From Prolixibacteraceae bacterium (GTDB taxonomy: Bacteria > Bacteroidota > Bacteroidia > Bacteroidales > Prolixibacteraceae), in assembly GCA_028282195.1 (NCBI GenBank), contig JANQII010000165.1:1-64000 (forward strand): a stretch of 64,000 nt of DNA, given 5' to 3'. Shown in pieces: positions 29,011 through 55,039 of the stretch. The notes under the pieces are model-generated. The model made no database searches and was not told where the DNA came from. It worked only from the letters and a program-made list of their open reading frames with translations. How positions within the stretch are numbered: the first letter of the stretch is position 1; each line of letters opens with the position of its first letter. Made by a program: the position numbers and the translations under genes.

Positions 29011-29012
29011 AT

Positions 29013-35395: not shown

Positions 35396-35758
35396 ATGAA
35401 AACGATAAAAAACAGAAATACCAATGGCAGGCCAGCTAAGAAACCTTCCGAAAAGAAAGCATATAAAATAACGGTAAAAATGGCCACAGAAGAATACTAC
35501 TCGCTGAAAGCCAAAGCTGGTTTGGCAGATATTAACCGCAGCGAATTTATCCGTCAGTGCATCCGTTCCACTGCGGTAAAACAACGGCTTACCCCGAAAA
35601 TGATGGGATACATTCGCCAGCTTTCCGGTATGGCCAACAATGTCAACCAGATTGCCCGCACAGCGAATGCTGCCGGATACCAGGAAGTACACAATCATTG
35701 TCTTGTAATGAATGAACGCCTGGATAAAGTAATTAAACGCATTGAAGATGATAGCTAA
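35396..35758 (+). CDS. mobC: Mobilization relaxosome protein MobC
   Basis: This 120-residue basic protein has a ribbon-helix-helix-like N-terminal region (KITVKMATEEYYSLKAKAGLADINRSEFIRQCI) and the MobC C-terminal motif LSGMANNVNQIARTAN. It helps the relaxase open oriT. The start at 35396 fits the family; the frame extends upstream through the candidate oriT, which is not coding. It overlaps the relaxase gene by 11 bp. Confidence 0.88.
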   Translation: MKTIKNRNTNGRPAKKPSEKKAYKITVKMATEEYYSLKAKAGLADINRSEFIRQCIRSTAVKQRLTPKMMGYIRQLSGMANNVNQIARTANAAGYQEVHNHCLVMNERLDKVIKRIEDDS

Positions 35759-37448: not shown

Positions 37449-38246
37449 CTAAATTATTCCCAGTTTCGTTGCAAGAATTACAGCCTCGGAAGAGTTGGAA
37501 ACACTTAGCTTTTTTATCAAGTTCCGGCGATGGTTGTTTACCGTGTTTACACTGATAGAAAGGCTTTCAGCGATCTGGTTGCTTTTTTCTCCTTTCGAAA
37601 TCAATTCCAGAACCTCTTTTTCACGGGTGCTTATATTGTTCCCGTTTGGGCTTTCTCCCCTGAGCGAATAGATTACTTCCCCGGAACGCTTATCACGAAG
37701 TAAAAACTGACCGGGCATATCTAAATTCTGGTTTGGTGAAAAGTCACAAAGTTTAAGGTCAAGCCATATGTTTCCTTTTTTATCCAGCTCGAGAATTTCA
37801 TTTTGAATAAGCAACCGAATCCACTCATCATTATCATTTTTTATCCTGAATTCATGGATAAGTCTGAGATTTTTTCGCTTTTCAACAGGAAGTTGGTAAA
37901 AGTATTTTAAAGTCCAGACACTTCCAGTATTGATAACATAGTCATCCGGGTGGAAACGCCGCCTGAACCATTTGTGGTCGGCGAATGGCAAATGATTGTT
38001 ATGAAAGCCAAAAATACTGTTAAAATTTTCGGAGAAATAGAAATAATCACGCTTGTAAAAATCAAAAGCAACAACAATGCTTGTTTGCAACGAATCAATT
38101 AGTTTTAAAAAAGGGAGAAATTTCTTCTCTGCTTTTTCATAATCAATATCCTCTGACCTGATAACGATTTTATCAAATTGTCTAGCGTGTTCATTGATAC
38201 TTTGTTCTAACCTCTCCATAAGGGATTTTTTCTTAAAAGTAGTCAA
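37449..38246 (-). CDS. LuxR-type transcriptional regulator with PAS-like sensor
   Basis: This 265-residue regulator has an N-terminal PAS-like domain (about 45-175, with YFYFSENFNSIFGF and FHPDDY). The C-terminal LuxR helix-turn-helix (about 205-262) reads ISTREKEVLELISKGEKSNQIAESLSIS and VNNHRRNLIKKL. No receiver domain is seen. It is transcribed divergently from the exported-protein cluster, with a 161-bp shared gap, so it is the obvious candidate controller of that cluster. The next Met (residue 10) is an alternative start. Confidence 0.88.
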   Translation of the reverse strand: MTTFKKKSLMERLEQSINEHARQFDKIVIRSEDIDYEKAEKKFLPFLKLIDSLQTSIVVAFDFYKRDYFYFSENFNSIFGFHNNHLPFADHKWFRRRFHPDDYVINTGSVWTLKYFYQLPVEKRKNLRLIHEFRIKNDNDEWIRLLIQNEILELDKKGNIWLDLKLCDFSPNQNLDMPGQFLLRDKRSGEVIYSLRGESPNGNNISTREKEVLELISKGEKSNQIAESLSISVNTVNNHRRNLIKKLSVSNSSEAVILATKLGII

Positions 38247-38407
38247 AAATGACTATTGGACAATTCTCTAATTATAAATATCTTATTGAAGTTTATTTTC
38301 CTGGGGTGTAAGAGAGATGTACTATTTTTTTTACTAATTGGTAACCCGTAATGTCACATTTTTGATCATATGGGTACTAAAGGGCAAAACATGAAATTTA
38401 GAATATT

Positions 38408-38980
38408 ATGAAAAACATTTACTTTTTACTTTTGGGGATCATTGCGCTAAGTCTTATATCATGTAACAGTTCAAGAAAAATTACGAAAGAAACTGCATCA
38501 GGAGAAGGTCGGGATGTATTTATTGTGCCTTGCGCTGATTTTAGTAAAAACTCAAAAGATGCTTTTCGAGCCACAGCGAGTGCTACAAGCCCCAACCACC
38601 AATTTGCAAAAGAAAAGGCAACAACTTTAGCCAGGAGTGCACTGGCTCAAAAGATTGAAACGTCAGTTGAAACAATGATTGATAATTATGCAAATCAATA
38701 TGACGTTGATAATGAGCAGGAGTTTAAAGAGATTACAAAAGCAATTACCCGGCAGGTGGTAGATCAGAAATTAACTGGACTTAATAAGACATGCGAACAA
38801 AGCTTCACACTTTCTTCAGGGAAATATGAAGTATGGGTTGGTATTGAAATGCCTATGGATAATGTTGGTAAATCTATTTATGACAGCATTTCACAAGAAA
38901 AGAAGATCCGGTTAGATTACGACTATGAGAAATTCAAGGAAGAATTACAAAAAGAACTGGAAAAAAGAAGAGAACAATAA
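38408..38980 (+). CDS. LPP20-like lipoprotein
   Basis: This 190-residue lipoprotein has a signal ending in lipobox LISC (residue 20). The mature part has the LPP20 pattern: FRATASATSPNHQFAKEKATTLARSALAQKI, then a strand (GKYEVWVGIEMP). LPP20-family proteins are outer-membrane-associated lipoproteins of unclear role. The C-terminus is a charged helix. It starts the exported cluster and is followed by a larger secreted protein with a related N-terminal domain. Confidence 0.75.
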   Translation: MKNIYFLLLGIIALSLISCNSSRKITKETASGEGRDVFIVPCADFSKNSKDAFRATASATSPNHQFAKEKATTLARSALAQKIETSVETMIDNYANQYDVDNEQEFKEITKAITRQVVDQKLTGLNKTCEQSFTLSSGKYEVWVGIEMPMDNVGKSIYDSISQEKKIRLDYDYEKFKEELQKELEKRREQ

Positions 38981-39002: not shown

Positions 39003-40820
39003 ATGAAACTGCCTGTTATAATATTTATTTCATTATGGTCTATTTCATTGAACCTGGAAGCACAGTCCATAACCGAAATAAGAAAATCGGGGAGATATCT
39101 TTATGGGCTGGGAAAATCTGAAGTCTATGAAAAAGCAGACCAGGCAGCTTTAAGCGATTTAATCAGCCAGATAAGCGTTAATGTTGAAGACAGTCTGACC
39201 ATTTTAAGAACAGAGATTGAGGGGGATTATAAAGAATATGCGCATTCGGTCGTTAATACTTATTCATCGGGTAGTTTATCAAATGCACTGCGGCTGGAAG
39301 AAGAAAGAGGTGGGGCTTATACAGTAATCCGTTATTTACCAAAAACTGACCTGAATAAAATTTTCGAGTCCCGTAAACAAGCAATCATTAATTATACTAA
39401 GGAAGGACTTAGGGCAGAATGGAAATTGCAAATTGGCGATGCGCTTCGAAATTTTTACTGGGCAAATATACTTTTAAGAAGTCACCCGGAATACAACAGT
39501 TTAAAATATGTTGAAGGGAATGACACTTTACAGTTAAAAGTTTTTTTACCTAACCGGATAAATGAAATATTCTCAAATATTGAAATAGAAGTTCAGGAAC
39601 AAAGCTATAAACCAGAAGAAAAATACGCCAGATACACGCTTAACCTGAAATATAAAAATAAGGACATACAAAATCTTGATTACACCTATAAGTTCAAAAA
39701 TTCCTGGTCTGGCACTGTTGATGCTGCAAATGGTTTGGCATTTCTTGAATTTTATGGTGACGATGCAAAAAAAGATAAAGAAATTAAAATCAGGGTTGAA
39801 TACATGTATCGGGATAAAGCCTTTTTTGATAAAGATGTTCAAAGCGTACTTTCTTCCGATTTGGATTTACCCTACTTTAATCGTTGTGAACTTACCGCTC
39901 ATCTTGATAAAGTAAAAACTGAAAATCCTCCTCTTTTGGTGGATGTTGAGTCTAAAGAAAAGATTAGCAAAATAGAAAAGCAATCTTTTAAAGATAAGTT
40001 TCAAAGTTTGTTGACTGCAATCGAAAAAAATGAGGTATTTTCTGATACTTCCCTGTTTACCGCTGACGGATTAAAAGCATACAATCAACTAATCAGATAT
40101 GGAAATGCAAAACTACTAACGGATAACAATAATCTTGAAATCATTAAAATTAATAATGAATCGATGGTTCGGTCTGTCCCGATGAAGTTCTCATTCTCAA
40201 AAAACAGGGACTTTGTTGAGGATGTCGTATTTATCCTGAACAATCAAGGTAAAATTGACGATCTGAATTTTTCATTAAGCGAAACGGCTATAAACGATAT
40301 CCTTTCAAAAGAAGATCGTTTTGCCTCACAGGAAGTTAAATTTTTTCTTATCCGGTTTATGGAAAATTATAAAACGGCCTATTGCCTGAAACGGCTGGAT
40401 TACCTTCAAAAAATATTTGATGAGGACGCCCTGATTATTGTAGGAAAAGTAGTTAAAAAGTCAAATCGCCCAGATGATTCGTATTATTCCAACTTTTCAA
40501 ATGAAGAAGTAACATACCAAAAGCTCTCGAAAAAACAATATTTATCCAACCTGAAACGTGTGTTTGACCTGAATGAATTTGTAAATATCCATTTTGAAGA
40601 CAATACCATAAAAAAAGCGAAAAAGGATATCAATATTTACGGAATCCAGATAGCCCAACATTATACATCGGCATCTTATGCCGACAAAGGATATCTTTTT
40701 CTGATGATTGATTTGCGAGATACCTTAAATCCATTGATTCATGTAAGGACATGGCAACCACAAAAAAACAAAGATGGTTCAATTTACGGACTGGAAGATT
40801 TTCCTTTTGAAACCTTATAA
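39003..40820 (+). CDS. Secreted protein with LPP20-like N-terminal domain
   Basis: This 605-residue exported protein has a signal peptide cleaved near LEAQ (residue 21). An LPP20-like domain (about 25-125: GRYLYGLGKSEVYEKADQAALSDLI) is followed by a helical hairpin and a beta-sandwich-like region (about 185-290). The long C-terminal half is unrecognised, with no catalytic motif seen. It is 22 bp after the LPP20-like lipoprotein and 2 bp before the PEGA protein, so the three are one operon. Confidence 0.75.
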   Translation: MKLPVIIFISLWSISLNLEAQSITEIRKSGRYLYGLGKSEVYEKADQAALSDLISQISVNVEDSLTILRTEIEGDYKEYAHSVVNTYSSGSLSNALRLEEERGGAYTVIRYLPKTDLNKIFESRKQAIINYTKEGLRAEWKLQIGDALRNFYWANILLRSHPEYNSLKYVEGNDTLQLKVFLPNRINEIFSNIEIEVQEQSYKPEEKYARYTLNLKYKNKDIQNLDYTYKFKNSWSGTVDAANGLAFLEFYGDDAKKDKEIKIRVEYMYRDKAFFDKDVQSVLSSDLDLPYFNRCELTAHLDKVKTENPPLLVDVESKEKISKIEKQSFKDKFQSLLTAIEKNEVFSDTSLFTADGLKAYNQLIRYGNAKLLTDNNNLEIIKINNESMVRSVPMKFSFSKNRDFVEDVVFILNNQGKIDDLNFSLSETAINDILSKEDRFASQEVKFFLIRFMENYKTAYCLKRLDYLQKIFDEDALIIVGKVVKKSNRPDDSYYSNFSNEEVTYQKLSKKQYLSNLKRVFDLNEFVNIHFEDNTIKKAKKDINIYGIQIAQHYTSASYADKGYLFLMIDLRDTLNPLIHVRTWQPQKNKDGSIYGLEDFPFETL

Positions 40821-41974: not shown

Positions 41975-43198
41975 ATGAGTTGGAAACATATAATTTTTCT
42001 GATTGGAATAATTTCTGTATTTCTTTCCTGTGAGAAAAAAAACTGGGATAATCCGTATGATGAACAGTCTTCCCCGGATTTAGACTGGGCTCCATTCATA
42101 TCAAGTATTAAACAAGAAGATGAAAGTATTGTATTGGAATTTGGTTGCAGTGAAACCAATTTTGATTCTTATGTGATAGAAAGAAGTGTTGATAATGGTG
42201 CATTCTCCAAAGTTGCAAGCCCTGCAAAAACTGCAAATAGCTGGACAGACAGTAATATCACATCAGGAGGGAAATTGTATAAGTATAAACTATACTGTAA
42301 GGCAGGGAATAATTTTAGTAATTCTGTTGAAAGAAGCATAACTCCTTATTTAATTCCTGTTATTAAAATTCAAATAGTTCAAGTTACACATATAAAAGCC
42401 AGTTGTAAAATAACAATTGAAAATGATGGTGGAAATACTAATTTGAAAACAGTCGCAGTTTGTTGGAGTCAATATGGATCACCAAATGTCAATAGTGATG
42501 GATACAATAATAAAATCTATAATAGTGATGAAGATTCTTATATAATTGAATTAACAAGATTAAATCCAAATACGACTTACTATTTAAAAGGTATTTTGTG
42601 GTATGGAACAAGTTACATTTATAGCAATGAGATTACTATACAGACTGATAAAATGATAATTGTCCAGACTGAAACTTTTATTGATAGCCGTGATGGACAA
42701 GAATACCCTACAATCAAAATAAACAATCAAACCTGGATGGCTAAGAATTTTTCGCTAAAAGTAAATGACGGATGTTGGGCATATGAAAATAAAGAAAGCC
42801 TGGTTGCCGAATACGGAAGATTATATACGTGGAAGAAAGCAAAGGAAATATGTCCAGCAGGATGGCATTTACCAACCACTAATGAATGGAAGGATTTAAT
42901 TGAATATGTTGGAGGTCAATTTGCCGGGGTAGATCGTTTAAGAACTACATTTGGTTGGTGGTTGGGTAATGGTGGAACTAATGGAAACAATGAAACCGGA
43001 TTCTCTATTTCACCTAGCGGTTGGCACAACATAAACGATGACAGTTTTGGACATCGATACTTGCGAGCTTTTTATTGGACAGCAACAGAATCAGGAAATG
43101 CTAAAGCAGATTATTTTAGTTTTGAATATACTGGTTCATATGGAGTTGGCTCTTATGACAAAAGCTTTGGTTTTTCTGTTCGTTATATTAAAGATTGA
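41975..43198 (+). CDS. FISUMP-domain lipoprotein with fibronectin-like repeats
   Basis: This 407-residue lipoprotein has lipobox LSC (residue 19) and the sequence KKNWDNPYDE, shared with the next gene. Two fibronectin-III-like domains (about 35-125 and 128-225) lead to a C-terminal FISUMP domain (about 230-407). FISUMP markers are IDSRDGQEYPTIKINNQTWMAKN, AGWHLPTTNEWKDL, YWTATE and SVRYIKD. FISUMP proteins are surface proteins of unknown function. It is 18 bp after the PEGA gene. Confidence 0.88.
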   Translation: MSWKHIIFLIGIISVFLSCEKKNWDNPYDEQSSPDLDWAPFISSIKQEDESIVLEFGCSETNFDSYVIERSVDNGAFSKVASPAKTANSWTDSNITSGGKLYKYKLYCKAGNNFSNSVERSITPYLIPVIKIQIVQVTHIKASCKITIENDGGNTNLKTVAVCWSQYGSPNVNSDGYNNKIYNSDEDSYIIELTRLNPNTTYYLKGILWYGTSYIYSNEITIQTDKMIIVQTETFIDSRDGQEYPTIKINNQTWMAKNFSLKVNDGCWAYENKESLVAEYGRLYTWKKAKEICPAGWHLPTTNEWKDLIEYVGGQFAGVDRLRTTFGWWLGNGGTNGNNETGFSISPSGWHNINDDSFGHRYLRAFYWTATESGNAKADYFSFEYTGSYGVGSYDKSFGFSVRYIKD

Positions 43199-43204
43199 AA
43201 AATC

Positions 43205-43891
43205 ATGAGGGGAAAAATATTAATATTAGTTCTAATAAGTTTGATAATTGTAACCTGTAACAAAAAGTACTGGGATAATCCTCATGATGAAAATACCTCT
43301 TCATATTTCGATTGGTCAGCATCTATAACAAGCATTAAACAGGAAGAAGAAAGTATTGTGTTAGAATTTGACTGCGATGAAACCAATTTTGATTCTTATG
43401 TGATAGAAAGAAGTCTTGACAATGGTGTTTTTTCTAAAGTTGCAAGCCCTACAAAAACTGTAAATAGCTGGACTGATAATAATATTACTTTAGGAGGGAA
43501 ACTTCATAAATACAAGATTTATGCTGAAGCAGGGAGTAATTCCAGTAATTATGATGAAGCAGAAATAGTTGCTTATCTCCCTCCAAAATTTAGTGCAAGT
43601 ATTACCCAGATTACATATTATTCATTTTCATGGAAGATTGATGTCTACGATAATGGGGGAGCGCCAATAAATCATCGGTATAATATTTATTACAAAGAAG
43701 AAGATGAAAAATTAAGATCTATAAATGTTAGTTCAAGAGGAGAAATCCCCATTAGTGGTACTTTATCAAACAACACTATGCTGTCAATAAAAGCATCCAC
43801 TGTTTACTATATTCAATTTGAAATAATAAATAATCAAAATAAAAAAGGACTAAGTGAATTTTTTAAAATCACAACAAAGGATGAACCATAA
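43205..43891 (+). CDS. Lipoprotein paralogous to the preceding N-terminus
   Basis: This 228-residue lipoprotein has lipobox VTC near residue 18. Its first 115 residues closely match the previous gene (YWDNPHDEN, ITSIKQEEESIVLEF, TNFDSYVIERSLDNG), so it arose by tandem duplication. It has two fibronectin-III-like domains but no FISUMP domain. The second domain differs from its neighbour. It lies 6 bp after the previous stop. It may be a surface partner or competitor of the longer protein. Confidence 0.8.
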   Translation: MRGKILILVLISLIIVTCNKKYWDNPHDENTSSYFDWSASITSIKQEEESIVLEFDCDETNFDSYVIERSLDNGVFSKVASPTKTVNSWTDNNITLGGKLHKYKIYAEAGSNSSNYDEAEIVAYLPPKFSASITQITYYSFSWKIDVYDNGGAPINHRYNIYYKEEDEKLRSINVSSRGEIPISGTLSNNTMLSIKASTVYYIQFEIINNQNKKGLSEFFKITTKDEP

Positions 43892-44019
43892 TATTTTGCT
43901 CATGATAAAAGTCAATGCTGTAAACAAAATTAAACTTAAAAAAATGAAAACTAACATTTAAAAAGGATTTAAGGTGAAATAAAAAAATCATTTATCAGCA
44001 ATAACTAAAATTTGCAAAC

Positions 44020-44988
44020 ATGAAAAGATTAACAATATTTTTAGTCTGTTTTCTAATCATTACAAATGGATTTTGTCAAGACATCGATGGTATGTTATGT
44101 GGATCTGAAGGTGAAAAACCTTTCTGGATTCTAAGATTTGATATAATTGACTCAGAAACTCATTATCCGATCGATGATGCGATAATAAATATTACTAGTG
44201 AAAGTGGCAAAGAGTTGAAGTGGCCCGCACACCGAGATGGATTCAGTATATTAATAGTAACAGATCCTAATTGTATTCCGGTTGATGGACAAATAGAAAT
44301 TACTTCCCCAAGGTATAGGTTCTATCAAAAGCCAATAAGACGAAATTATTTTAAAACTGAGAAAGATGATCGAATGATATATCTAGAAGGATATAACCAA
44401 AATTGGACCGATTTAAATCAATTACCAGAAACGCAAGAAATATTTGACAAAATAAGGGATAAAAGATACAGGGTTGGAGTGAAGGAAATTAATTCTGAAT
44501 TTGGTTTTAGGGTGGCAAACTTTGCCCCCGCTTGTTTTGAATACAGTGTTGAAATGGAAAGAATCAATGGAGAGGACTTTTACTCGGATCACAGCCCCTA
44601 TAATCGTGTACCTCAAAAAAATAATTCCAATCTGAGAGGATTTCAAATCCCTTCAATTACTTACAATGGAGAGACCATCTATGTTTTTCCCAATGATTTG
44701 ACGAATGGGCCATACCATTGGGATCAGGCTAAAAATGCGTGCAGTTTATTGAATCGGTTAGGTTATGACGATTGGTATTTGCCTTCAAAGGAGGAATTAA
44801 ACGTTTTATATATCAACAAAGACAAAATTGGCGAATTTAATGGATGGTATTGGAGTGCGACTGAGTCATCATCGAGAAATGCCTGGATACAAAATTTTAA
44901 GTATGGAACACAGGAAACCATATATAAAGGAACTACCTACAATATTCACAAAGGCAATATTAAAGTACGATGTATAAGAAAAGAATGA
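44020..44988 (+). CDS. Secreted DUF1566 (Lcl-like) protein
   Basis: This 322-residue exported protein has a signal peptide (cleavage near GFCQ), an unrecognised N-terminal region, and a C-terminal DUF1566/Lcl-type domain (about 215-322). That domain has GPYHWDQAKNACSLL, LGYDDWYLPSKEELNVLY, WYWSATES and IKVRCIRKE. The domain is distantly related in fold to FISUMP (both have WHLP/WYLPS, WSATES and VRCI motifs). Likely a surface or periplasmic binding protein. Confidence 0.82.
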   Translation: MKRLTIFLVCFLIITNGFCQDIDGMLCGSEGEKPFWILRFDIIDSETHYPIDDAIINITSESGKELKWPAHRDGFSILIVTDPNCIPVDGQIEITSPRYRFYQKPIRRNYFKTEKDDRMIYLEGYNQNWTDLNQLPETQEIFDKIRDKRYRVGVKEINSEFGFRVANFAPACFEYSVEMERINGEDFYSDHSPYNRVPQKNNSNLRGFQIPSITYNGETIYVFPNDLTNGPYHWDQAKNACSLLNRLGYDDWYLPSKEELNVLYINKDKIGEFNGWYWSATESSSRNAWIQNFKYGTQETIYKGTTYNIHKGNIKVRCIRKE

Positions 44989-45377
44989 AAATAAATCTAA
45001 AGGTTACCTTTTTGTTACTGATTGTTCTACCAACTATACAGGAATCTGGATTAATAATGTGAGGTTTGGTTTTAACTGTAAATTGCTTGGTGGCGCAGGG
45101 CTTTCTTTTAACGAAGGAAAGTTATTTCAAATGTGGTTTTGCACAAACACAGATCTTAAAGAAATAATGACTCGTAATTTTGAGCCAGGAGTAAGGCATA
45201 GTTACTATACAGATGATAATAAAAGAGAATGGTGGGATGCGACAACTTATTCATGTTGATTATGAAGTTGGTTCTGTTTGGATAGAACAATGGAAAATTA
45301 ATGACAAAGCCTATCAAAGAGATCATAGAAGAACTGATTTTAAAAGATATTTAAGACTAAAAAATCAATCAAAATGA
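44985..45377 (+). pseudogene. Frame-broken exported protein gene
   Basis: Three overlapping reading frames seem to be parts of one gene. A signal-peptide-like start (MKINLKVTFLLLIVLPTI, from 44985) stops at 45060. A second frame without an ATG continues to 45259 (for example LFVTDCSTNYTGIWINNV and REWWDATTY). A third runs from 45237 to 45377 (DYEVGSVWIEQWKIND). Two frameshifts would join them. It starts inside the end of the DUF1566 gene. The product is unrecognised; assembly error is an alternative. Confidence 0.45.
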
Positions 45378-45805
45378 AAAATTTTAATTATTACTTAGTT
45401 GTTATGGTACTTTTTGTTTTTCAAAGTACCTCTGTTTTCTCACAAGGAAAAATAAACAAAGTTATTGATGGGGATTTGTTCACAATTGTTGTGAAAGGAT
45501 ATGCATCTGAAAAATTGTGGATAGGATGTACAATTAATCCTGACACTTATAGCGAAATTGATTTAAAACCTAAACGTGTATCGAAGGGAAATTATGAAGT
45601 GTCATTTAACTTAAGTACTGGTGCTGCCAACAGTTTAATGCGGGGGAATTCTTCAATACCATATGTAGTTGCATTATGGGAAGAAAAAATTAGCTTGAAA
45701 GAATGTGAAAAAAGATATGGAAAAGGCTCAAAGCAATGTAAGTGGGCAAGAAAAAATGGATACCAGTTTGAGGGTAGGATTGATAGGTATTCAGGAAGAT
45801 ATTAA
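45374..45805 (+). CDS. Hypothetical secreted protein
   Basis: This 143-residue exported protein has a signal peptide cleaved near VFSQ (residue 24) and a single beta-rich domain of unknown family (LFTIVVKGYASEKLWIGCTINPDTYSEIDL ... GNYEVSFNLSTGA is its signature, shown in part). Cys residues late in the chain (SLKECEKRYGKGSKQCKW) could form a disulfide. It overlaps the third frame of the broken gene by 4 bp. Confidence 0.6.
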   Translation: MKNFNYYLVVMVLFVFQSTSVFSQGKINKVIDGDLFTIVVKGYASEKLWIGCTINPDTYSEIDLKPKRVSKGNYEVSFNLSTGAANSLMRGNSSIPYVVALWEEKISLKECEKRYGKGSKQCKWARKNGYQFEGRIDRYSGRY

Positions 45806-45822
45806 CCATAAATTACTGAAAG

Positions 45823-46263
45823 ATGAAAAAGATAATAGTATTGGTGACCATATTCCTTCTTAGCATGAATGCATTCTCCTCTAAAATCATAGTAGTTGGT
45901 GTACTTGAAAGATACAACAAACATGAGGATTATTATTGTACTATTAAATCTATGAATGATGCTCCCGAAAGAGTAATTAGACTAAACATAGAAAATGAAC
46001 TAAAACAATACCCGGGATATAATGCGATGACCGATTTTATTCATGTATTTATAGGTTTTCCTGGTGAAAAACATCTTACCATAATTGAATATAAAAATAA
46101 ATATGGAGTAGGAATTGGATGTAATGAAAAAGAAGCATTGAAAAAAGCTGAAAATATAATAAAGCTATATTTTGGAATAGGAAGTTATCCTAAATTCGAA
46201 TTAAATAAAAAGCTTAATTATAAAATCAAATATTCAAAAAATTTAACTGATAAATTAAAATAA
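45823..46263 (+). CDS. Hypothetical exported protein
   Basis: This 146-residue protein has a signal peptide (about 1-19, NAFSSK) and a mixed alpha/beta domain with a central helix (EKEALKKAENIIKLYF). I recognise no family. It is 17 bp after the preceding secreted-protein gene and 4 bp before the FISUMP gene, so it belongs to the same exported-protein operon. Confidence 0.6.
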   Translation: MKKIIVLVTIFLLSMNAFSSKIIVVGVLERYNKHEDYYCTIKSMNDAPERVIRLNIENELKQYPGYNAMTDFIHVFIGFPGEKHLTIIEYKNKYGVGIGCNEKEALKKAENIIKLYFGIGSYPKFELNKKLNYKIKYSKNLTDKLK

Positions 46264-46267
46264 AACT

Positions 46268-46909
46268 ATGAAAACAAATACTATTTTGCTTTTCCTTCTC
46301 TTTGTTTTCTTTAGCTCTAAAGCTCAAAACTCAGGAGTATTCACAGATAAGAGAGATGGTCAAAAATATAAATGGGTAAAAATAGGGAATCAAATATGGA
46401 TGGCAGAGAATTTAAATTATAATTCTGGGCGAGGTTCAGGTAAATATGGTTTAATCTATGGGCGTATTTATGATTGGGAAACCGCAAAAAAAGTTTGTCC
46501 GAGTGGCTGGCACCTACCATCAGACAATGAATGGAAACAATTAGAAGAAACATTAGGGATGCCAGTTTCAGAACTTAATAAAGAGGCTTCTTTTGACAGA
46601 GAGACCGGTCAGGTCGGATTAAAATTAAAATCGAAAAGTGGATGGAGGCTAGGAATGGGTAAACGCAATGGAAATGGCATTGATTTGGTAGGATTTAATG
46701 CTTTACCTGGTGGACATTATAATTTGAGATTAAAGCGTTTTCAACTTTATGGACACACTATTTATTTTTGGACTTCTGATATTCACTCTTGGGATGGTAA
46801 CTATCCAAATATCATCATCAGAGGTATTACTAATGATGATGATGGAATCAATCGTATTAGTTTCCCTGACACTTTTGGTGCATATATAAGATGTATAAGA
46901 AATAACTAA
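46268..46909 (+). CDS. Secreted FISUMP-domain protein
   Basis: This 213-residue exported protein has a signal peptide (cleavage near SSKAQ) followed almost directly by one FISUMP domain. Its motifs are TDKRDGQKYKWVKIGNQIWMAENL, GRIYDWETAKKVCPSGWHLP, FNALPGG and YIRCIRNN. It is the minimal form of the domain found in the lipoprotein at 41975. It is the last gene of the exported cluster. Function of the domain is unknown. Confidence 0.88.
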   Translation: MKTNTILLFLLFVFFSSKAQNSGVFTDKRDGQKYKWVKIGNQIWMAENLNYNSGRGSGKYGLIYGRIYDWETAKKVCPSGWHLPSDNEWKQLEETLGMPVSELNKEASFDRETGQVGLKLKSKSGWRLGMGKRNGNGIDLVGFNALPGGHYNLRLKRFQLYGHTIYFWTSDIHSWDGNYPNIIIRGITNDDDGINRISFPDTFGAYIRCIRNN

Positions 46910-47025: not shown

Positions 47026-47346
47026 ATGAAAAAACCTCGTTTTGACTTTATTTACCTGTTGGTTGTATTAGGCATTATATTCCTGATAATACAATTTGAT
47101 ACTTTAAATACCACAACATTAATCACCTATCTGGCTTTTTTCGATATTATTTTGGGTTTCGTTCTCATTTTAAAAGGATTTATCAAATGGGATATGAGTT
47201 ACATATTCACGGGAGCATTTTGTGCTTTGTGCTCTTTTTACTCTTTTAAAGAAATGTCTGATTCCGCTCTTTTCTTTCTTATACTTGGTGGATTGGCAGG
47301 AGTTGGGAACCACGTTCGGAAAACGTTTAAAAATCTGTTGGGATAA
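47026..47346 (+). CDS. Small membrane protein before the sigma factor
   Basis: This 106-residue protein has three to four membrane helices (about 9-25, 30-50, 58-75, 80-95). Family unknown. It lies 20 bp before the ECF sigma gene and may be co-transcribed with it, perhaps as part of the signal-sensing module. Confidence 0.6.
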   Translation: MKKPRFDFIYLLVVLGIIFLIIQFDTLNTTTLITYLAFFDIILGFVLILKGFIKWDMSYIFTGAFCALCSFYSFKEMSDSALFFLILGGLAGVGNHVRKTFKNLLG

Positions 47347-47366
47347 ATTGATTTAAACCAAAATAA

Positions 47367-47984
47367 GTGTCACAAACCATCCGAAATAAGTACAATAAAG
47401 TAGCGTATTCCGAAAAAGATTTAATTACGGGGATAATTCAAAACCAGGACTGGGCCATACGCGAAATTTACAAAACGCAATATGTAGTAATAAAAAAAAT
47501 GGTTTACACATTCAGAAATACAACACTTGAACCGAATGATATTTTCCAGGAGGGTTTAACCCGGGCAATCCTGAATATCAGGAAGGGGAAGTTTAACCAA
47601 CACAGTACTTTTAGTACTTACCTGAATGGAATCTGTAAAAACATTTGTTTAAAACAACTGCATCAGCAAAAAAATATACCCGTTATTGAAGAACAAACAC
47701 CTGATTTTCAAGAAGAAGATTTGTATTATGAAATGCTTTCGTTGATTAATCATATTAAGGCACATTTAAACACTAACTGCCGCGAAATTATTGACCTGCG
47801 TTTTAACCAGGACGATAAACAGACTGACAAATTAAATCCAAAGAATAAGCTAACCGGATTTGAAGAAATTGCCGAAAGGTTGAATATCACGACCGACAAT
47901 GCACGCCAACGTTTTAAACGTTGCCTCGAACAATTGCGGAAAATGGTTTTTGAACATCCTGAGTATAAAACATTATTTGACTAA
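47367..47984 (+). CDS. ECF-type RNA polymerase sigma factor
   Basis: This 205-residue sigma-70 family protein has a region 2 core (LEPNDIFQEGLTRAILNI, FSTYLNGICKNICLKQL). Region 4 (about 160-195) carries a helix-turn-helix (GFEEIAERLNITTDNARQRFKRCLEQL). It starts at a GTG; no ATG lies upstream of region 2. The next gene, 3 bp later, encodes a single-TM protein of anti-sigma shape. It probably controls its own operon, including the C10 protease. Confidence 0.85.
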   Translation: MSQTIRNKYNKVAYSEKDLITGIIQNQDWAIREIYKTQYVVIKKMVYTFRNTTLEPNDIFQEGLTRAILNIRKGKFNQHSTFSTYLNGICKNICLKQLHQQKNIPVIEEQTPDFQEEDLYYEMLSLINHIKAHLNTNCREIIDLRFNQDDKQTDKLNPKNKLTGFEEIAERLNITTDNARQRFKRCLEQLRKMVFEHPEYKTLFD

Positions 47985-47987
47985 ATC

Positions 47988-48668
47988 ATGAGTAAATTAA
48001 CTGATAAAGACTTCAACCTGATTGAGGATTTTATTTCAGGAATCCTTTCACCTGAAGAAGAAAAAAGATTTAGGGAAAGACTGGAAAAAGATACCGGGCT
48101 GGCTAAAGAATATAAGTTCCGTACTAAAATAAAGAAATACTGGAATGATGCAGAAACCTATTCAACCACAAAGGATAAAATAAAACATGTGATTGCTTTT
48201 GAAAAAAAGAAAAAAAGCAATAGGCTTGTTTGGTCAATAGCTGCATCTGTCGCGATCTTAATAGGAATTTCCGCATTGATTTATCCGCAATTAAACATAA
48301 AGGAATCTAGCCTGGTTGATACAAAATCTGATCCTGTTGTTCCCAGGGGTACGCCATTATACATAGAACAACAGCCAGAAAAAGGAAAATTATATACGCT
48401 ACCCCTGACTTTTACAACAAAAGATACTTTACTCATCAGGCGTAAACCGGATTTTCCAGACTCGGGAACAGTAAGTTTAATCGAACAGGAAAATCACAAA
48501 GAAATATTTAGGATGGAATACTCCCGGGAGATTGATTCCATTTTAATTCCTCTATCCCGGATAACTCCCGGAAATTACCAATGGACAATTAACGGCACCA
48601 TGTATTCCGGTAGTTTTCGGATTCAGGAAGGCAATTCACAACAAAACAGCAAAATGGAAGTAAGATGA
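47988..48668 (+). CDS. Putative anti-sigma factor, single TM
   Basis: This 226-residue protein has a cytoplasmic N-terminal helical region (about 1-75) with FISGILSPEEEKRFRERLEKD, a pattern typical of ECF anti-sigma proteins. One membrane helix follows (about 80-98) and then a periplasmic beta-rich domain of about 125 residues. It starts 3 bp after the sigma gene and overlaps the next gene by 4 bp. It likely holds the sigma factor until an envelope signal arrives. Confidence 0.72.
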   Translation: MSKLTDKDFNLIEDFISGILSPEEEKRFRERLEKDTGLAKEYKFRTKIKKYWNDAETYSTTKDKIKHVIAFEKKKKSNRLVWSIAASVAILIGISALIYPQLNIKESSLVDTKSDPVVPRGTPLYIEQQPEKGKLYTLPLTFTTKDTLLIRRKPDFPDSGTVSLIEQENHKEIFRMEYSREIDSILIPLSRITPGNYQWTINGTMYSGSFRIQEGNSQQNSKMEVR

Positions 48669-50122
48669 AAAAAATAGTGTTGCTTTTGATATTCAATTCA
48701 ATAGGATTTTATTCCATTGCACAACCTGATTCCATTATCCGACAATTTCAAATGGATTTTGAAGCTTACAAAAATTCAGTGGATCAGGAATTTAAAAAAT
48801 ATAAAGCTCAAAACGATTCTGCATTTCTTCATTTTTTAGAACAAACATGGAAAGAATTCGAGATTTTTCGCAGGACACAGCCTGTGCGCCCGAAACCTGT
48901 TGAGCAACCTGTTATTAAAGAAAAAGAAGACACGATTCCCCAACAGATTGAAACAATTGTTCCTATTAAATCATCGGCACAGGTGGAAAAAGAAATGCCA
49001 TTCCCTGAATTAAAAGAAGCGGAGGCAATCAAGTTTGAAGCCCGGATAATTTCCCGTCCGTTCAATTGTTTTGGAGAGCAGGTGGAGTGTTATTATTACC
49101 CCGATAAGCTTCCCCGCCTGACTTTTATAAATGAGAACTCTATAAGACAGTTTTATAAAACATTAACAAAGAATGATATTCTTTGGAATTACAACCTCGC
49201 AGGGTTTGAAAAATTTAAAACAAGGCATAAATTAAACGACTGGGGATACTACCTGATAATAAAAAAAGCTTCTGAGAATATTTTCCCCCATCAAAATGAG
49301 CAAATTTTATTTATATGGTATGCTCTTTTGAAAAGCGGGTATCAGGCAAAAGTTAGTTATAACAATAATAAAATATACCTGTTACTCCCGTCACAACAAA
49401 GGTTATTTAATATACTTTATCTCAATGAAGAAGGGACAGATTACTATTTGTTGGACAATCAGGACAAAAAACCCGGAGAACTTAAAACCTATCCGGGATT
49501 TTTTACGAAGAATCCGAAAATCATTTCATTCAAATTAAACGAGCTTCCTGTTTTTAATCATGATAATATAAAAATTCGTCAGATTGCTTACGACCAGCAG
49601 AATATTCAATTAAAATTCAATCCGCAGTTAATCGATTTTTTCAACACGTTTCCCCAATGCGAATTAAACACATATTTGGGAACTCCCATATCACCTGAAA
49701 ATATTAAGATTCTGGATAACTTACTTAACCCTTTATTAACAGGGAAAAATAAAAGAGTTCAGGTGGATATTCTCCTGGATTTTATACAAAAAGCGATTGC
49801 CTATAAAACAGACCAGGAACAATTTGGGAAAGAGCGTTACATGTTTGCCGAAGAATGTTTGTATTATCCTTATGCAGACTGCGAGGACAGAACAAATTTA
49901 CTGGCGGAACTGGTTGCCCGATATACCCAACTGGCAACAATTGTATTAAACTTTCCCGAACATGTTACCCTGGCTGTGAACTTCCCAAATAACGAACAAG
50001 GCGATTTTGTACTTCATAAAGGGAAGAAATACCTTGTTTGTGACCCTACCTTTATAAATGCCAAAAGCGGAATGCTTCCGGTAGATTTAAAAAATAAGAA
50101 GCCAAAAATAGTTGTAAACTAA
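48665..50122 (+). CDS. Exported transglutaminase-like protein
   Basis: This 485-residue protein has a signal peptide (cleaved near YSIAQ), a charged helical N-terminal region and a Pro-rich linker (about 75-110). The C-terminal half is of transglutaminase-like cysteine-protease fold. The triad candidates are Cys406 (YADCEDRTN), His433 (FPEHVTLAV) and Asp460 (LVCDPTF), well spaced for the fold. It may hydrolyse or cross-link peptides in the periplasm. It overlaps the anti-sigma gene by 4 bp and could be the signal-processing or effector enzyme of the module. Confidence 0.78.
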   Translation: MKKIVLLLIFNSIGFYSIAQPDSIIRQFQMDFEAYKNSVDQEFKKYKAQNDSAFLHFLEQTWKEFEIFRRTQPVRPKPVEQPVIKEKEDTIPQQIETIVPIKSSAQVEKEMPFPELKEAEAIKFEARIISRPFNCFGEQVECYYYPDKLPRLTFINENSIRQFYKTLTKNDILWNYNLAGFEKFKTRHKLNDWGYYLIIKKASENIFPHQNEQILFIWYALLKSGYQAKVSYNNNKIYLLLPSQQRLFNILYLNEEGTDYYLLDNQDKKPGELKTYPGFFTKNPKIISFKLNELPVFNHDNIKIRQIAYDQQNIQLKFNPQLIDFFNTFPQCELNTYLGTPISPENIKILDNLLNPLLTGKNKRVQVDILLDFIQKAIAYKTDQEQFGKERYMFAEECLYYPYADCEDRTNLLAELVARYTQLATIVLNFPEHVTLAVNFPNNEQGDFVLHKGKKYLVCDPTFINAKSGMLPVDLKNKKPKIVVN

Positions 50123-50144
50123 GAACTTTATAAAGTTGTCAGAT

Positions 50145-53100
50145 ATGTTCAAATTTTACCTAATCCATAGAAGAAAGTTGATTGCAGCATTTATTGTAAT
50201 TCTTTATTCGTTGCAATTAAATGCACAATTGGTAACTCCTGAATTAGCCCAAAAAGTTGCAGCAAATTTTTATAATTCACAAATGCAGTCAGACAAAAAC
50301 TTTAAAAGTGCTGATGTCGATCAACTCTCACTTGCAAAAGTGTGTTACAGTAAACAAACACTAAAAAATACAGATGAAGAAAAGATACCATTGTATTACA
50401 TTTTTAATATTGAAGATGATAAGGGATTTATAATTGTTTCAGGAAGAAATGGAATAAATCCAGTTATAGGTTACTCAACTAACGGTGAGTTTCCAAAGAA
50501 TAAAAAACATCCTATTTATGATTGGATAGAGTTTATGAAAATCCGGTTATCTTCAAGGTTAGAAAATAAATCGACTGGATTAGATACTAATAATATAAAA
50601 TTTAATTCTCAAGCGTATGCCACAGTTGGTCCACTATTAGGGAATATTGAATGGGATCAAGGTGCACCATATTATTGTTATGTTGTTGATCTTTATGATG
50701 AATTTGTACCAATGGGCTGTGTTGCTATTGCTTGTGCCCAAATAATGCAATATTATAAATATCCATTGATTGGAATAGGAAATATGAATTATAAGGAAAG
50801 TGGAAATGATCCTAAACTTGGGAATATTTATGTCAACTTTGAAGATAATTATTATAACTGGCATTTGTTTGAAGATAAAATAGAATTTAGAAATGATTTG
50901 AGTTGTGATAATGAAAAAAGTGGAGTCTCGGAAGTTATATTTGAAATTGCTGCTTCATTGGAAACTGATTTTGGAAATAGAGCGGATGATGGTAGTGTTG
51001 CATATATTGAGAATGTATTTGGCGCAGATGCACATCATGCATTGGAAGATTATTTTGGATTTAAAGGGATAGAATACAATGGTACTGGCTTGACAACAAG
51101 TTTTAATGAATGGAAAAATTTAATTATCAACGAACTGAACGATCATCGTCCCATAATATATTCTGCAAATGATGGAATAGTTGGTGAGGGACATGCTTTT
51201 ATTTGTGATGGTTATGATAGTGAGAATAGATTTCATTTTAATTGGGGATGGAGAGGTGAAGGAAATGGTTGGTTTTTATTAGATTCTATGCAACCAGATG
51301 TTAGGTGGGGAGATCCTGATTACTCTTATGAGATTTTTTTAACATCTATGTTAACTGGAATTGCGCCTGATTTCGACAATCCTGCTATAGATCAATTTGA
51401 ACCAGATAATACCTATAACAAGGCCACTACATTAGAACACAATAAACCTCAATTGCACAGTATTTCTCCCCAAACCGATCGTGATTATTATAAATTTATT
51501 TTAACCTCTTCTGCAAATGTCACTATCGAAACCAAAGGTGTCAATGGGAATACACAAATGTGGTTGTACGATTCAAATCAACAATACATGGACTATGATG
51601 ACGATTCAGGCGATTCTGGAAGTGGACCAAATAGTAAACTTGTAAGACAACTTTCCAAAGGTACATATTATGTGATGGTGGAAGAAAAAGGAGGTGATGC
51701 AAACATACCAAGTTATGTAATTTCATTGGATGTTGAATATCTTCCAACAAACGAACCGCAATTAAGTAACATTAGTTTTTCACCGCAAACCGGAGATCAA
51801 TCAACTACTTTTAACTTTTATGTGGATTATTACGATGCAAATGGAGATGCACCAGAACAAAATGGTGCAGAATGTTGCATAATCGGTGAAGGATGTAAAA
51901 CCATGCAGCGTATTAGTGGTACTCCTTCAAATGGTACTTACAGGTATTCCATACAATTACCAATTGGATCCCATCAATTCAAATATAACTTTACGAATAC
52001 CGTGGGAGAAAGAGTTGAAACTGAATATATGCAGGGTCCAATAGTTACTCAGGAAGTTGAAAATAGACCTCCAAATAAGCCAACATTAATTACGCCTGAG
52101 AATGGGATAACAGTTTCAGTGCCTTTTACATTTAGTTGGGATTGTACTGATCCAGATGGAGATCAATTGACTTATAATTTTGCAATTAGAAAGGATGGAG
52201 GAAATTGGGACAGTGAGGGATTCACTCAAACGTCATGGGAGATCACTGAAGAACTTGATGAAAATGAATATGGAACTTATGATTGGTATATTATGGCATC
52301 GGATGGAGAATTCGAAACTCAAAGTGATATATGGACATTTATTATACAAGAAAATACTCCCAGTATTAATGTAAATGATTCACTTGCACTTGTAGCACTT
52401 TATAATTTATGTAATGGCAATAACTGGACAAATAATTCAAACTGGCTAACGACTCCTGTTAAAGATTGGTACGGAATAACAGTGGAAAATGCCAGAGTAA
52501 CTCAAATAAATTTAAGTAATAATAATTTGGCTTATCATTTGCCTGAAGAAATCGGTAATTTAACTGAGCTTGTAAAACTTGATGTCGGGAAAAATAATTT
52601 GGAAGGAACAATACCAACTGAAATTGGCAATCTTACAAATTTGGTATATCTTATATTGGGAGACAATTATACTGGGGTTCACAATAAATTTACGGGTGAA
52701 ATACCGATTGAAATTGGAAATTTGAAAAAACTTATGATCCTAATACTAGACTTTAATGAACTGAGTGGAGAAATTCCGGATGAAATATGGAATCTGGAGA
52801 ATCTGATTTACTTAAGGTTACAAGGAAACCAATTCACCGGAAGAATTTCTAATAAAATAGGTAATTTATCAAATTTGCAGTTGTTATGGTTAGGAAAGAA
52901 TCAACTCATCGGAAATATTCCGCAAGAAATTGGGAACTTGTCCAGGTTAATTTATTTAAGTTTGATGAGTAATAAACTCACAGGAGAGATTCCAGAATCA
53001 ATTGATCAATTAACTAATCTAAAAAGTTTTAATGCAGCTGACAATGAGTTATCGTTAATTCCCAACTCATTAGGAAATCTGTCCGGGCTATATTCAATCT

Positions 53101-54500
53101 CATTACATAACAATCAATTTACAGGTGCAGTGCCTTCAACATTTACGAACCTTTCGAATTTAGAGTTGATAAACTTAAGAAATAATAAATTGACGGATAT
53201 ACCTGATTTAAGTAATCTCAAAAACTTAGTTCGGGTTGACCTCTCCAGTAATTCTTTTTCGTTCGAAGACCTTGAAGCTAATATGAATATTACTTTAAAT
53301 ACTGTAGGCCCATCTGGAAACCAATTTGGTAAAGGTTTTTATTACTCCCCTCAAAATAAAATTGGAGAAGCTTATTCTCTAGAAATAAACGAAGAACAAG
53401 ACTATACATTATCAGTTGATTGCGGAGGGACAAATAATCAATATCAATGGTTCAAAAATGATATTGCTTTAAATAATCCTAATTCTGATCCAAGATATAT
53501 TATCAACTCATTCGGTAAAGAAAATGAAGGTATTTATACGTGTAAAATATCCAATTCTTTGGTTCCTGATTTAGTTCTTGAATCTTACCCGATTACACTT
53601 ACAATGCAAGATTTAACGGCACCAACTTTGTCAGTTACCCCATTGTCAAGTTCCAATTTACCTAATCAATTTAGTGTTTTCCTCACTTTTAGCGAAGATG
53701 TAACAGGTGTTGTAGAAGGTATATCTGTAACTAATGGAGTTGCAAATATAACAGGTACCGGTAAAAATTATACTGTAATCATTAATGCAGAAGACAATAC
53801 TGAGGTAACATTATTCATCGCCAACACTGTTACCGATATGGCCGGGAATCATTTTGAAGGAATGTCATATAATTACTCAGTTGGAGATAATACACCTCCA
53901 GTGATGACTGCCTGCTATCCAAATGATACTATAATTGACGACAATCATCCTACTTTCAATTTTTCTTTTAATGAAGAAATCGTTTTGGGCAGTGGAAGCC
54001 TAAGAGTTTATCAGAAAAATGGTACCACAACTCCCACACTTTCAATTCCTTTTGTTGAAAATATGATCGATGGGAAAAATGTTTCGGTAACTTACGAATC
54101 CTCAACTAACAGAAATTTTGAATTAAATACCGAATACTTTGTTACAATAAATGCCGGTTCTTTTGCCGATTTGTCTGGAAATATATTTGAAGGTATTAAA
54201 GATAGTGATACCTGGCATTTCAAAACAGGAACAAATTATGCCACTTCTATAAAAATGATTGTTGACAATTCAATTAATATTTACCCTAACCCCGTAAGTC
54301 AACACCTAAATATTGAATTTACAACAATGCCCAGGAAATACGAAATTGAATTTTACAATACCGTTGGCCAAATGGTTATCCAAAAACAAAGCGCTAACCA
54401 GGTAGAGCAACTAAATTTAAAGGAACTTACAAACGGTATATATTATCTTAAGATTTATAATGAAGAATTTTCAAAAACTGAAAAGATAATCGTAAAATAA
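50145..54500 (+). CDS. C10 peptidase fused to LRR and Ig-like domains, T9SS substrate
   Basis: This 1451-residue secreted multidomain protein has a signal peptide (to about LNAQ) and an inhibitory pro-region. A streptopain-type C10 cysteine protease domain (about 165-405) has Cys192 in MGCVAIACAQIMQYY and His350 in GEGHAFICDGY. Next are a PPC-like domain (about 420-535), two Ig/fibronectin-like domains, and leucine-rich repeats of the LxxLxLxxNxLxGxIPxEIGNL plant-like type (about 745-1060). Ig- and SbsA-like domains follow, then a T9SS type A sorting domain starting YPNPVSQ. The ATG at 50145 is chosen. It is the last gene of the sigma-controlled operon. Confidence 0.9.
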   Translation: MFKFYLIHRRKLIAAFIVILYSLQLNAQLVTPELAQKVAANFYNSQMQSDKNFKSADVDQLSLAKVCYSKQTLKNTDEEKIPLYYIFNIEDDKGFIIVSGRNGINPVIGYSTNGEFPKNKKHPIYDWIEFMKIRLSSRLENKSTGLDTNNIKFNSQAYATVGPLLGNIEWDQGAPYYCYVVDLYDEFVPMGCVAIACAQIMQYYKYPLIGIGNMNYKESGNDPKLGNIYVNFEDNYYNWHLFEDKIEFRNDLSCDNEKSGVSEVIFEIAASLETDFGNRADDGSVAYIENVFGADAHHALEDYFGFKGIEYNGTGLTTSFNEWKNLIINELNDHRPIIYSANDGIVGEGHAFICDGYDSENRFHFNWGWRGEGNGWFLLDSMQPDVRWGDPDYSYEIFLTSMLTGIAPDFDNPAIDQFEPDNTYNKATTLEHNKPQLHSISPQTDRDYYKFILTSSANVTIETKGVNGNTQMWLYDSNQQYMDYDDDSGDSGSGPNSKLVRQLSKGTYYVMVEEKGGDANIPSYVISLDVEYLPTNEPQLSNISFSPQTGDQSTTFNFYVDYYDANGDAPEQNGAECCIIGEGCKTMQRISGTPSNGTYRYSIQLPIGSHQFKYNFTNTVGERVETEYMQGPIVTQEVENRPPNKPTLITPENGITVSVPFTFSWDCTDPDGDQLTYNFAIRKDGGNWDSEGFTQTSWEITEELDENEYGTYDWYIMASDGEFETQSDIWTFIIQENTPSINVNDSLALVALYNLCNGNNWTNNSNWLTTPVKDWYGITVENARVTQINLSNNNLAYHLPEEIGNLTELVKLDVGKNNLEGTIPTEIGNLTNLVYLILGDNYTGVHNKFTGEIPIEIGNLKKLMILILDFNELSGEIPDEIWNLENLIYLRLQGNQFTGRISNKIGNLSNLQLLWLGKNQLIGNIPQEIGNLSRLIYLSLMSNKLTGEIPESIDQLTNLKSFNAADNELSLIPNSLGNLSGLYSISLHNNQFTGAVPSTFTNLSNLELINLRNNKLTDIPDLSNLKNLVRVDLSSNSFSFEDLEANMNITLNTVGPSGNQFGKGFYYSPQNKIGEAYSLEINEEQDYTLSVDCGGTNNQYQWFKNDIALNNPNSDPRYIINSFGKENEGIYTCKISNSLVPDLVLESYPITLTMQDLTAPTLSVTPLSSSNLPNQFSVFLTFSEDVTGVVEGISVTNGVANITGTGKNYTVIINAEDNTEVTLFIANTVTDMAGNHFEGMSYNYSVGDNTPPVMTACYPNDTIIDDNHPTFNFSFNEEIVLGSGSLRVYQKNGTTTPTLSIPFVENMIDGKNVSVTYESSTNRNFELNTEYFVTINAGSFADLSGNIFEGIKDSDTWHFKTGTNYATSIKMIVDNSINIYPNPVSQHLNIEFTTMPRKYEIEFYNTVGQMVIQKQSANQVEQLNLKELTNGIYYLKIYNEEFSKTEKIIVK

Positions 54501-54953: not shown

Positions 54954-54965
54954 TTGATTTTCAGG

Positions 54966-55039
54966 TAGCGAGAGGCGGGCTTGAACCGCCGACCTCATGA
55001 TTATGAATCATGCGCTCTAACCAGCTGAGCTACCTCGCC
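54966..55039 (-). tRNA. tRNA-Met (anticodon CAT)
   Basis: The gene folds as a complete cloverleaf. The acceptor GGCGAGG pairs TCTCGCT (with G-T pairs at both ends of the stem), the D-arm is GCTC/GAGC, the anticodon arm CATGA/TCATG has loop TTCATAA, and the T-arm is GGCGG/CCGCC with TTCAAGC. A73 is followed by CC and then T, so the terminal A is added. The elongator tRNA-Met is more likely than the CAT-anticodon Ile tRNA, judged by overall similarity. Its 3' 46 bp are the att copy of element B. Confidence 0.92.

What the first reader, a model, noticed from the sequence alone, without database searches (positions are those of the whole stretch)
47026..54500. Mobile ECF sigma / anti-sigma / transglutaminase / C10-LRR protease module
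Five genes are nearly contiguous (gaps of 3 and 22 bp, one 4-bp overlap, and 20 bp before the sigma gene). They encode a small membrane protein, ECF sigma, a single-TM anti-sigma, an exported transglutaminase-like enzyme (Cys406/His433/Asp460) and a 1451-residue T9SS protease with plant-type LRRs. A dedicated regulator travelling with a surface protease on a mobilizable element is unusual. It suggests a self-contained sensing and secretion cassette, in which the transglutaminase-like protein may process the signal or modify the protease.
Basis: partly seen in the sequence, partly recalled or inferred. Interest (0 to 1): 0.7.

Follow-up and report, generated by a model that had tools for sequence, protein, structure and literature searches.

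The report
Mobile sigma-controlled envelope protein operon
A mobile DNA element in a Bacteroidales bacterium carries a self-regulated set of cell-surface genes whose switch, a sigma factor, appears to recognise its own signature sequence, while the striking surface protease first noticed looks like a late add-on to that set.

Summary
The five-gene "cassette" is the wrong unit. Across relatives the conserved core is sigma, anti-sigma and an exported transglutaminase-fold protein (TGL), together with Lpp20-type, caspase and FISUMP genes. The small membrane gene was found only here; a C10 protease adjoins TGL in 2 of 81 loci. TGL carries an invariant Cys-His-Asp triad (81 of 81); its fold is nearest LapG, a periplasmic cysteine protease, although the LapG Pfam model does not match. 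I found a promoter-like motif, TGTCACA-N14-GGTACWA, at the sigma gene and before Lpp20-type operons: 13 hits against 0.8 expected in nine loci not used to see it; in a fresh set, 4 of 4 loci with sigma or anti-sigma and 0 of 11 others. In the window it marks two units: the Lpp20/PEGA/FISUMP operon (38408 on) and the sigma operon, which ends in the C10-LRR protease. Best reading: a mobile ECF regulon for surface lipoproteins and a LapG-like protease. All regulation is predicted; nothing was tested at the bench.

The parts
29006..29058 (.). attL: copy of the 3' part of tRNA-Met (53-nt repeat, 96% to attR)
54958..55010 (.). attR, inside the tRNA-Met gene 54964-55039 (-)
29236..30468 (+). tyrosine integrase of the element
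   Evidence: Pfam Phage_integrase; 21-nt repeats at 29183 and 54896
34373..35284 (+). primase-like protein (CHC2 zinc finger, Toprim), element backbone
   Evidence: backbone conserved in relatives
35742..36659 (+). MobA/VirD2-type relaxase
   Evidence: Pfam Relaxase 4.8e-36; relatives in 62 of 140 family genomes
37449..38246 (-). PAS/LuxR-type regulator, divergent from the Lpp20 operon
38352..38379 (+). promoter-like motif TGTCACAT-N14-GTACTA, 0 mismatches, before the Lpp20 gene
38408..38980 (+). Lpp20-family lipoprotein (190 aa)
   Evidence: profile to PDB Lpp20 5ok8 E 1.4e-4; Foldseek Lpp20 E 9e-4
39003..40820 (+). 605-aa exported protein with weak LPP20 match
   Evidence: 60% identical over 56% of its length in the L002 genome
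40823..41956 (+). PEGA-domain exported protein
41975..46909 (+). surface-type gene run: FISUMP (41975, 46268), fn3-like (43205), Lcl_C (44020), two unknowns (45374, 45823)
47026..47346 (+). small membrane protein, found only in this locus
47367..47984 (+). ECF sigma factor (205 aa)
   Evidence: TIGR02937 1.4e-17
47368..47395 (+). promoter-like motif overlapping the sigma start codon
47988..48668 (+). single-pass anti-sigma factor
   Evidence: weak NCBIfam anti-sigma hit 4e-4
48665..50122 (+). exported transglutaminase/LapG-fold protein (TGL), Cys406-His433-Asp460
50136..54500 (+). T9SS-type C10 protease with I69 prodomain, LRRs and sorting tail; accessory last gene of the sigma operon

Best explanation
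The module is cargo of an IME in tRNA-Met. Membrane-held anti-sigma restrains the ECF sigma factor (inferred from gene pairing). On an envelope signal, still unknown, the freed sigma recognises TGTCACA-N14-GGTACWA (predicted from conservation). In the window this fires two units: the Lpp20/PEGA/FISUMP operon from 38408, and a unit starting at the 5' end of the sigma gene that makes anti-sigma, TGL and, here only, the C10-LRR protease. TGL is an exported cysteine-protease-fold enzyme of LapG type whose likely job is to trim or release the co-regulated surface lipoproteins (inferred). The C10-LRR protease is an appended, T9SS-exported effector co-transcribed by position (inferred).
For: Conserved unit: sigma and anti-sigma sit before TGL in 7 of 81 loci of the first set (in an 8th, L006, the anti-sigma is cut by the contig end) and in further loci of family and order genomes. 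The 11 sigma-linked TGLs tested form one clade, 97/94 support, in a tree of 84. Nearest relative L002 has the same gene order from the Lpp20 gene to TGL, with Lpp20 73% and TGL 49% identical. Motif: 13 hits in 9 loci not used to see it, 0.82 expected from control loci; of spacers 10-25 only 17 stands out (13 hits, next highest 4). Strict pattern: 15 hits in 10 genomes of the sigma-linked clade against 1 in 10 genomes without TGL. Fresh loci: 4 of 4 with sigma or anti-sigma, 0 of 11 without (one of the four, L238, was assigned by hand, see Tried and rejected). In G144 it precedes an Lpp20-caspase-FISUMP operon on a different contig from sigma. Motif copies at sigma genes use two reading frames, so the conservation is at DNA level. 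TGL fold: LapG Z 10.9 and 9.5. No terminator-like site 46800-55100.
Against: No expression data. Reversed-pattern control gives 4 hits in 20 genomes (3 in the sigma-linked ones), and three sigma-linked genomes (G004, G145, G146) have no exact hit, only 1-mismatch copies. Two of the four exact hits in the window's own genome lie outside the module: one inside a gene, one about 320 nt before a gene of another kind. At the window's sigma gene the only standard start, GTG 47367, overlaps the -35 box, so a transcript from there would not encode full sigma: either another promoter makes sigma, or my start or promoter call is wrong. TGL's substrate and protease activity are not shown; Foldseek E is only 1.6e-3. 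sigma/anti-sigma pairing rests on adjacency.
Confidence: 0.7

Rival explanations
1. One reading: a self-contained five-gene cassette in which TGL processes or modifies the C10-LRR protease.
For: Tight spacing, no terminator-like site, and one independent adjacency: in L064 a C10 protease (912 aa) follows TGL by about 25 bp after Lpp20 and CHASE2 genes.
Against: C10 next to TGL in 2 of 81 loci and in 0 of 15 further loci (L240 left out as a duplicate of L011); membrane gene in 1 of 81; the genome of the nearest relative, L002, gives no C10-domain match at E<=0.001; 9 C10 loci elsewhere show no sigma/anti-sigma/TGL in their 2.8-4.2 kb.
Confidence: 0.12
2. The C10-LRR protease is a genuine sigma-regulon effector recruited by position, and T9SS-exported effectors are a recurrent output of this regulon.
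For: Last gene of the sigma operon; in L004 a T9SS-tail protein has its own 1-mismatch motif copy just upstream of the sigma gene; L064 adjacency.
Against: No motif directly before 50136; C10 not found beside this sigma elsewhere.
Confidence: 0.3
3. The motif is a binding site for some other regulator (for example the divergent LuxR-type protein), not the sigma factor's promoter.
For: The motif is inferred from co-occurrence only.
Against: Two-box layout with fixed 17-nt spacer, -35 half identical to the published ECF41 -35 (PMC3426412, passages), 47-80 nt before Lpp20-type starts; absent in 11 of 11 fresh TGL loci that lack sigma and anti-sigma. LuxR-type relatives by phmmer in only 4 of 81 loci.
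Confidence: 0.12

Closest known systems
LapG (bacterial transglutaminase-like cysteine protease, Peptidase_C93)
   Same: Exported; transglutaminase-like fold; Cys-His-Asp triad; best structural match (Z 10.9).
   Different: No PF06035 match (0 of 118 phylum genomes including this one); extra ~330-residue N-terminal part; sits with Lpp20/FISUMP/sigma genes.
ECF41 sigma factors (PMC3426412, passages read)
   Same: -35 TGTCACA and a similar spacer; regulon limited to neighbouring genes.
   Different: -10 is GGTACWA, not CGTC; no large C-terminal extension; membrane anti-sigma instead; different targets.
Lpp20 outer-membrane lipoproteins
   Same: Profile and fold match.
   Different: Here under an ECF sigma with PEGA/FISUMP/caspase genes; no flagellar genes seen in the loci read.
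Bacteroidota integrative mobilizable elements
   Same: Tyrosine integrase, tRNA att, relaxase, primase-like gene, variable cargo.
   Different: Carries its own ECF regulon; a same-genus relative of the element (L166) carries a different sigma/anti-sigma with a WD40-like caspase protein.
Type III-E CRISPR CASP-sigma with Csx29 (PMC10028731, listing and abstract start only)
   Same: ECF sigma paired with a caspase-superfamily protease, as recalled.
   Different: No CRISPR genes in the parts examined; here the proteases are exported.

Membership tests
LapG / Peptidase_C93 | Match to PF06035 | tested here: not met
   No Pfam hit at E<=1; 0 of 118 genomes incl. G000, Caulobacter control rings
LapG / Peptidase_C93 | Transglutaminase-like fold with Cys-His-Asp | tested here: met
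LapG / Peptidase_C93 | Cleaves a surface adhesin, inhibited by LapD | not testable with these tools
   no biochemical data
Transglutaminase-like superfamily | Pfam transglutaminase-like models | tested here: inconclusive
   window protein none; of 30 relatives 3 match DUF553 and 2 Transglut_core weakly
ECF sigma factor | sigma regions 2 and 4, no region 3 | tested here: met
ECF41 | large C-terminal regulatory extension | tested here: not met
   protein ends 12 residues after the sigma model match
ECF41 | promoter TGTCACA-n16-CGTC | tested here: not met
   -35 matches, -10 is GGTACWA (PMC3426412 passages)
Integrative mobilizable element | integrase, att repeats, relaxase | tested here: met
Integrative mobilizable element | empty site in relatives | tested here: inconclusive
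   3 of 6 sibling species have an intact tRNA-Met in the same place before START_2/LptF-G and 1 of 6 in the other orientation; TGL absent in all 6; flanks not matched base by base
Lpp20 family | profile and fold | tested here: met
   Pfam LPP20 only 1.4e-3, below cut-off
C10 peptidase, T9SS cargo | C10 domain, Cys and His, type A sorting tail | tested here: met
   (Cys/His motif recalled)
Anti-phage defence system | PADLOC model match | tested here: not met
   sigma, anti-sigma, TGL, Lpp20, 605-aa and PEGA proteins: 0 hits

The most novel reading that the evidence does not exclude
An undescribed ECF group with its own promoter code (TGTCACA-N14-GGTACWA) runs a mobile Bacteroidota surface-remodelling system. 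Its promoter overlaps the sigma gene's own start, so activation makes anti-sigma and TGL but little new sigma: a built-in brake. TGL is a LapG-like protease that acts on the anti-sigma or on lectin-fold lipoproteins, closing the loop between surface state and transcription.
Probability: 0.2. Interest if true: 0.8.

Novelty: new variant of a known kind. Interest (0 to 1): 0.58.

Why it matters
It turns a loose gene-neighbourhood guess into a testable regulon: one sigma factor, one promoter signature, two transcription units and a small set of exported targets, all on an element that can move. It gives a function lead for a widespread exported protein family without a Pfam match of its own (TGL) and for Lpp20-type, FISUMP and exported caspase proteins in Bacteroidota, which I found no paper treating together (searches; open-access library only).

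Tried and rejected
Five-gene unit: rejected on co-occurrence. Enumerating 4-mer pairs upstream of nine sigma genes gave nothing above shuffles; the motif was seen by eye in that same output in three sites (window Lpp20, L002 Lpp20, L004 sigma), and the test leaves out those three loci. In the window alone the loose 3-mismatch pattern is no more frequent than chance, 11 against 10.6; only the comparison across loci carries weight. In one search the sigma-bearing set counted L144, which repeats part of L002, so its 21 hits include one site twice. In the fresh set I put L238 among the positives by hand: only the end of its anti-sigma is on the contig (E 3.4e-12), and the script's own cut-off of 1e-15 labelled it 'no'. 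By the script's labels the split is 3 of 3 against 1 of 12. L241's motif copy has one mismatch in the -35 box (TGTAAC). PDB profile search with TGL: no relevant hit. Relaxase in the seven genomes of the sigma-bearing loci: 0 of 7, so mobility by this element type is not shown for the relatives. Motif in the sister IME L166 or in 20 other IME cargo stretches: none. L240 is the same sequence as L011 and L129 the same as L006; neither is counted twice. L128 shows sigma next to TGL without anti-sigma at a contig end; not explained. Viral, phage and plasmid collections were not searched. Family HMMs used for the neighbour counts were built from the same loci, so F1/F4/F6 counts are clusters, not independent annotations.

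Full report
Observation. All five ORFs and their spacing are as described. Pfam confirms an ECF-type sigma factor and a C10 peptidase with I69 prodomain, PPC, LRRs, Ig-like domains and a T9SS tail; the transglutaminase-like protein (TGL) has no Pfam hit. The genome (G000, 5.84 Mb, 348 contigs) holds one TGL copy. L006, titled Prolixibacteraceae, has the same sequence as contig G121:C326 (L129) of a same-family genome, so the window is probably from that family.

The mobile element. A 53-nt direct repeat at 29006-29058 and 54958-55010 (96%) is the 3' part of tRNA-Met; its 33-nt core occurs exactly twice, 0 expected. A tyrosine integrase starts 178 nt inside the left end, and a 21-nt arm-like repeat stands near both ends. 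Relaxase, DUF5906 and primase-like genes follow. So the module is inside a ~25.95 kb IME, and the C10 gene is its last cargo gene. Relaxase relatives occur in 62 of 140 family genomes. In 20 stretches downstream of related relaxases plus L166, cargo differs: SusCD-like loci, metal-resistance-like genes, defence-like genes (read from sequence starts and a few HMMs, not fully annotated). L166, in the window's own genus, carries on a closely related backbone (integrase 72%, relaxase 76%) another ECF sigma, another anti-sigma and a WD40-like caspase protein.

What is conserved. A scan of genome contigs gave 80 TGL loci (122 stretches encoded relatives, the best 80 were kept). With the window that is 81. 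Sigma and anti-sigma stand before TGL in 7 of 81, the membrane gene in 1 of 81, a C10 domain beside TGL in 2 of 81. Lpp20-type clusters (F1, F4 or F6) lie within six genes of TGL in 54 of 81, FISUMP-type in 23, caspase-type in 20, CHASE2 in 12 (the window and L002 fall outside the six-gene limit, their Lpp20 genes being 13 and 9 ORFs away). L002, the nearest relative, repeats the window's order Lpp20, 605-aa, PEGA, surface lipoproteins, sigma, anti-sigma, TGL, and then changes strand. Others read sigma, anti-sigma, TGL, F6, F1, caspase, FISUMP. A tree of 84 TGLs puts the 11 sigma-linked ones in one clade (97/94; 1 change, 0 of 500 shuffles as low). TGL is in 31 of 140 family genomes but in none of 6 other species of the genus, as expected for cargo.

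TGL. Cys406, His433 and Asp460 are invariant in 81 of 81. AlphaFold2 with 30 sequences: pLDDT 87.2, pTM 0.83. Residues ~332-485 are a transglutaminase-like domain; the best matches are LapG (Z 10.9, rmsd 3.8 over 139 residues; Foldseek E 1.6e-3, probability 1.0), above transglutaminases and PNGase (Z about 8). The LapG Pfam family itself does not match. I therefore call it LapG-like in fold, not a LapG.

Lpp20. The profile of the window's 190-aa lipoprotein and its relatives matches Lpp20 (E 1.4e-4) and another lipoprotein chain (9hmf, E 2.9e-4) in the PDB, and its model matches Lpp20 best.

A promoter code. Comparing upstream regions I saw TGTCACAT-N14-RTACTA in three places. Scanned with one mismatch allowed and a 17-nt gap between TGTCAC and TACTA, sigma-bearing loci have 9.28 hits per 100 kb and control TGL loci 0.77; at gaps 16 and 18 there is little difference, at gap 15 it is 1.77 against 0.38 (4 and 5 hits). 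In nine loci not used to see it: 13 hits, 0.82 expected, P 6e-12. Exact pattern in 20 whole genomes: 15 hits in 10 genomes of the sigma-linked clade (13 of 15 at or before sigma, Lpp20-type or lipoprotein genes), 1 in 10 genomes without TGL; reversed-pattern control 3 and 1. In a fresh set of 15 loci, 4 of 4 with sigma or anti-sigma have it and 0 of 11 others (Fisher P 7e-4; one of the four assigned by hand, otherwise 3 of 3 against 1 of 12). Twenty-two sites give the consensus TGTCACAW...GGTAC(T/A)AA. Motif-to-start distance is 47-80 nt for Lpp20-type genes. At sigma genes the motif overlaps the ORF's 5' end in 7 of 8 sites and in two reading frames, so the DNA is what is conserved. In the window the only standard sigma start, GTG 47367, has an in-frame stop just before it and overlaps the -35 box. 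Either sigma is made from a longer transcript, or translation begins at an unusual codon; L004 and L239 have an ATG right after the motif.

How it probably works. Shown here: gene order, conservation, motif statistics, predicted folds. Inferred: anti-sigma holds sigma; an envelope signal frees it; sigma switches on the Lpp20/PEGA/FISUMP operon and the anti-sigma/TGL unit; the C10-LRR protease comes along by read-through, there being no terminator-like site. TGL would then trim or release co-regulated surface proteins, as LapG does with its adhesin (recalled).

Comparison with what is known. The -35 half equals that of ECF41 (PMC3426412, passages), but the -10 and the protein architecture differ. 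In a Flavobacterium study (PMC9723704, passages) an ECF-type motif with a CGT -10 box precedes T9SS genes; ours is different. Paper searches for the combinations used here listed nothing that I recognised as this system; I read listings and, for three papers, passages, and the library holds only open-access papers.

Verdict. Real, mobile and probably regulated as a unit, with different boundaries from those proposed. New variant of a known kind.

Noticed in passing
21000-29006: A second tyrosine integrase (21559-22932) and a stretch ending at the left att copy, with GTGCCCCAA-like repeats near 28938, suggest a second element in tandem at the same tRNA-Met.
   Followed up: partly
55063-55125: Third, degenerate copy of the tRNA-Met anticodon part just beyond the intact tRNA: likely scar of an older insertion.
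   Followed up: no
42007-42306 and 43234-43533: 300-nt direct repeat (78%) between the starts of two surface lipoprotein genes (FISUMP 41975 and fn3-like 43205): lipoprotein duplication within the cargo.
   Followed up: no
L166 (G135:C4:880000-899999): Related IME in the same genus carries a different ECF sigma/anti-sigma with a 1315-aa WD40-like caspase protein; no copy of the motif found there.
   Followed up: partly
L064:7774-14263: Lpp20-CHASE2-TGL-C10 protease operon in a Bacteroidaceae genome: independent TGL-C10 adjacency.
   Followed up: partly
30512-31870: Schlafen AlbA_2 / RecG-type ATPase gene in the IME; PADLOC pAgo-type models match it at 3e-18.
   Followed up: no
L014:1577-2815 and TGL N-termini: MltC-type lytic transglycosylases lie near TGL in 6 of 81 loci and their models cross-match TGL proteins, probably through the N-terminal part; possibly a shared docking region.
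   Followed up: no
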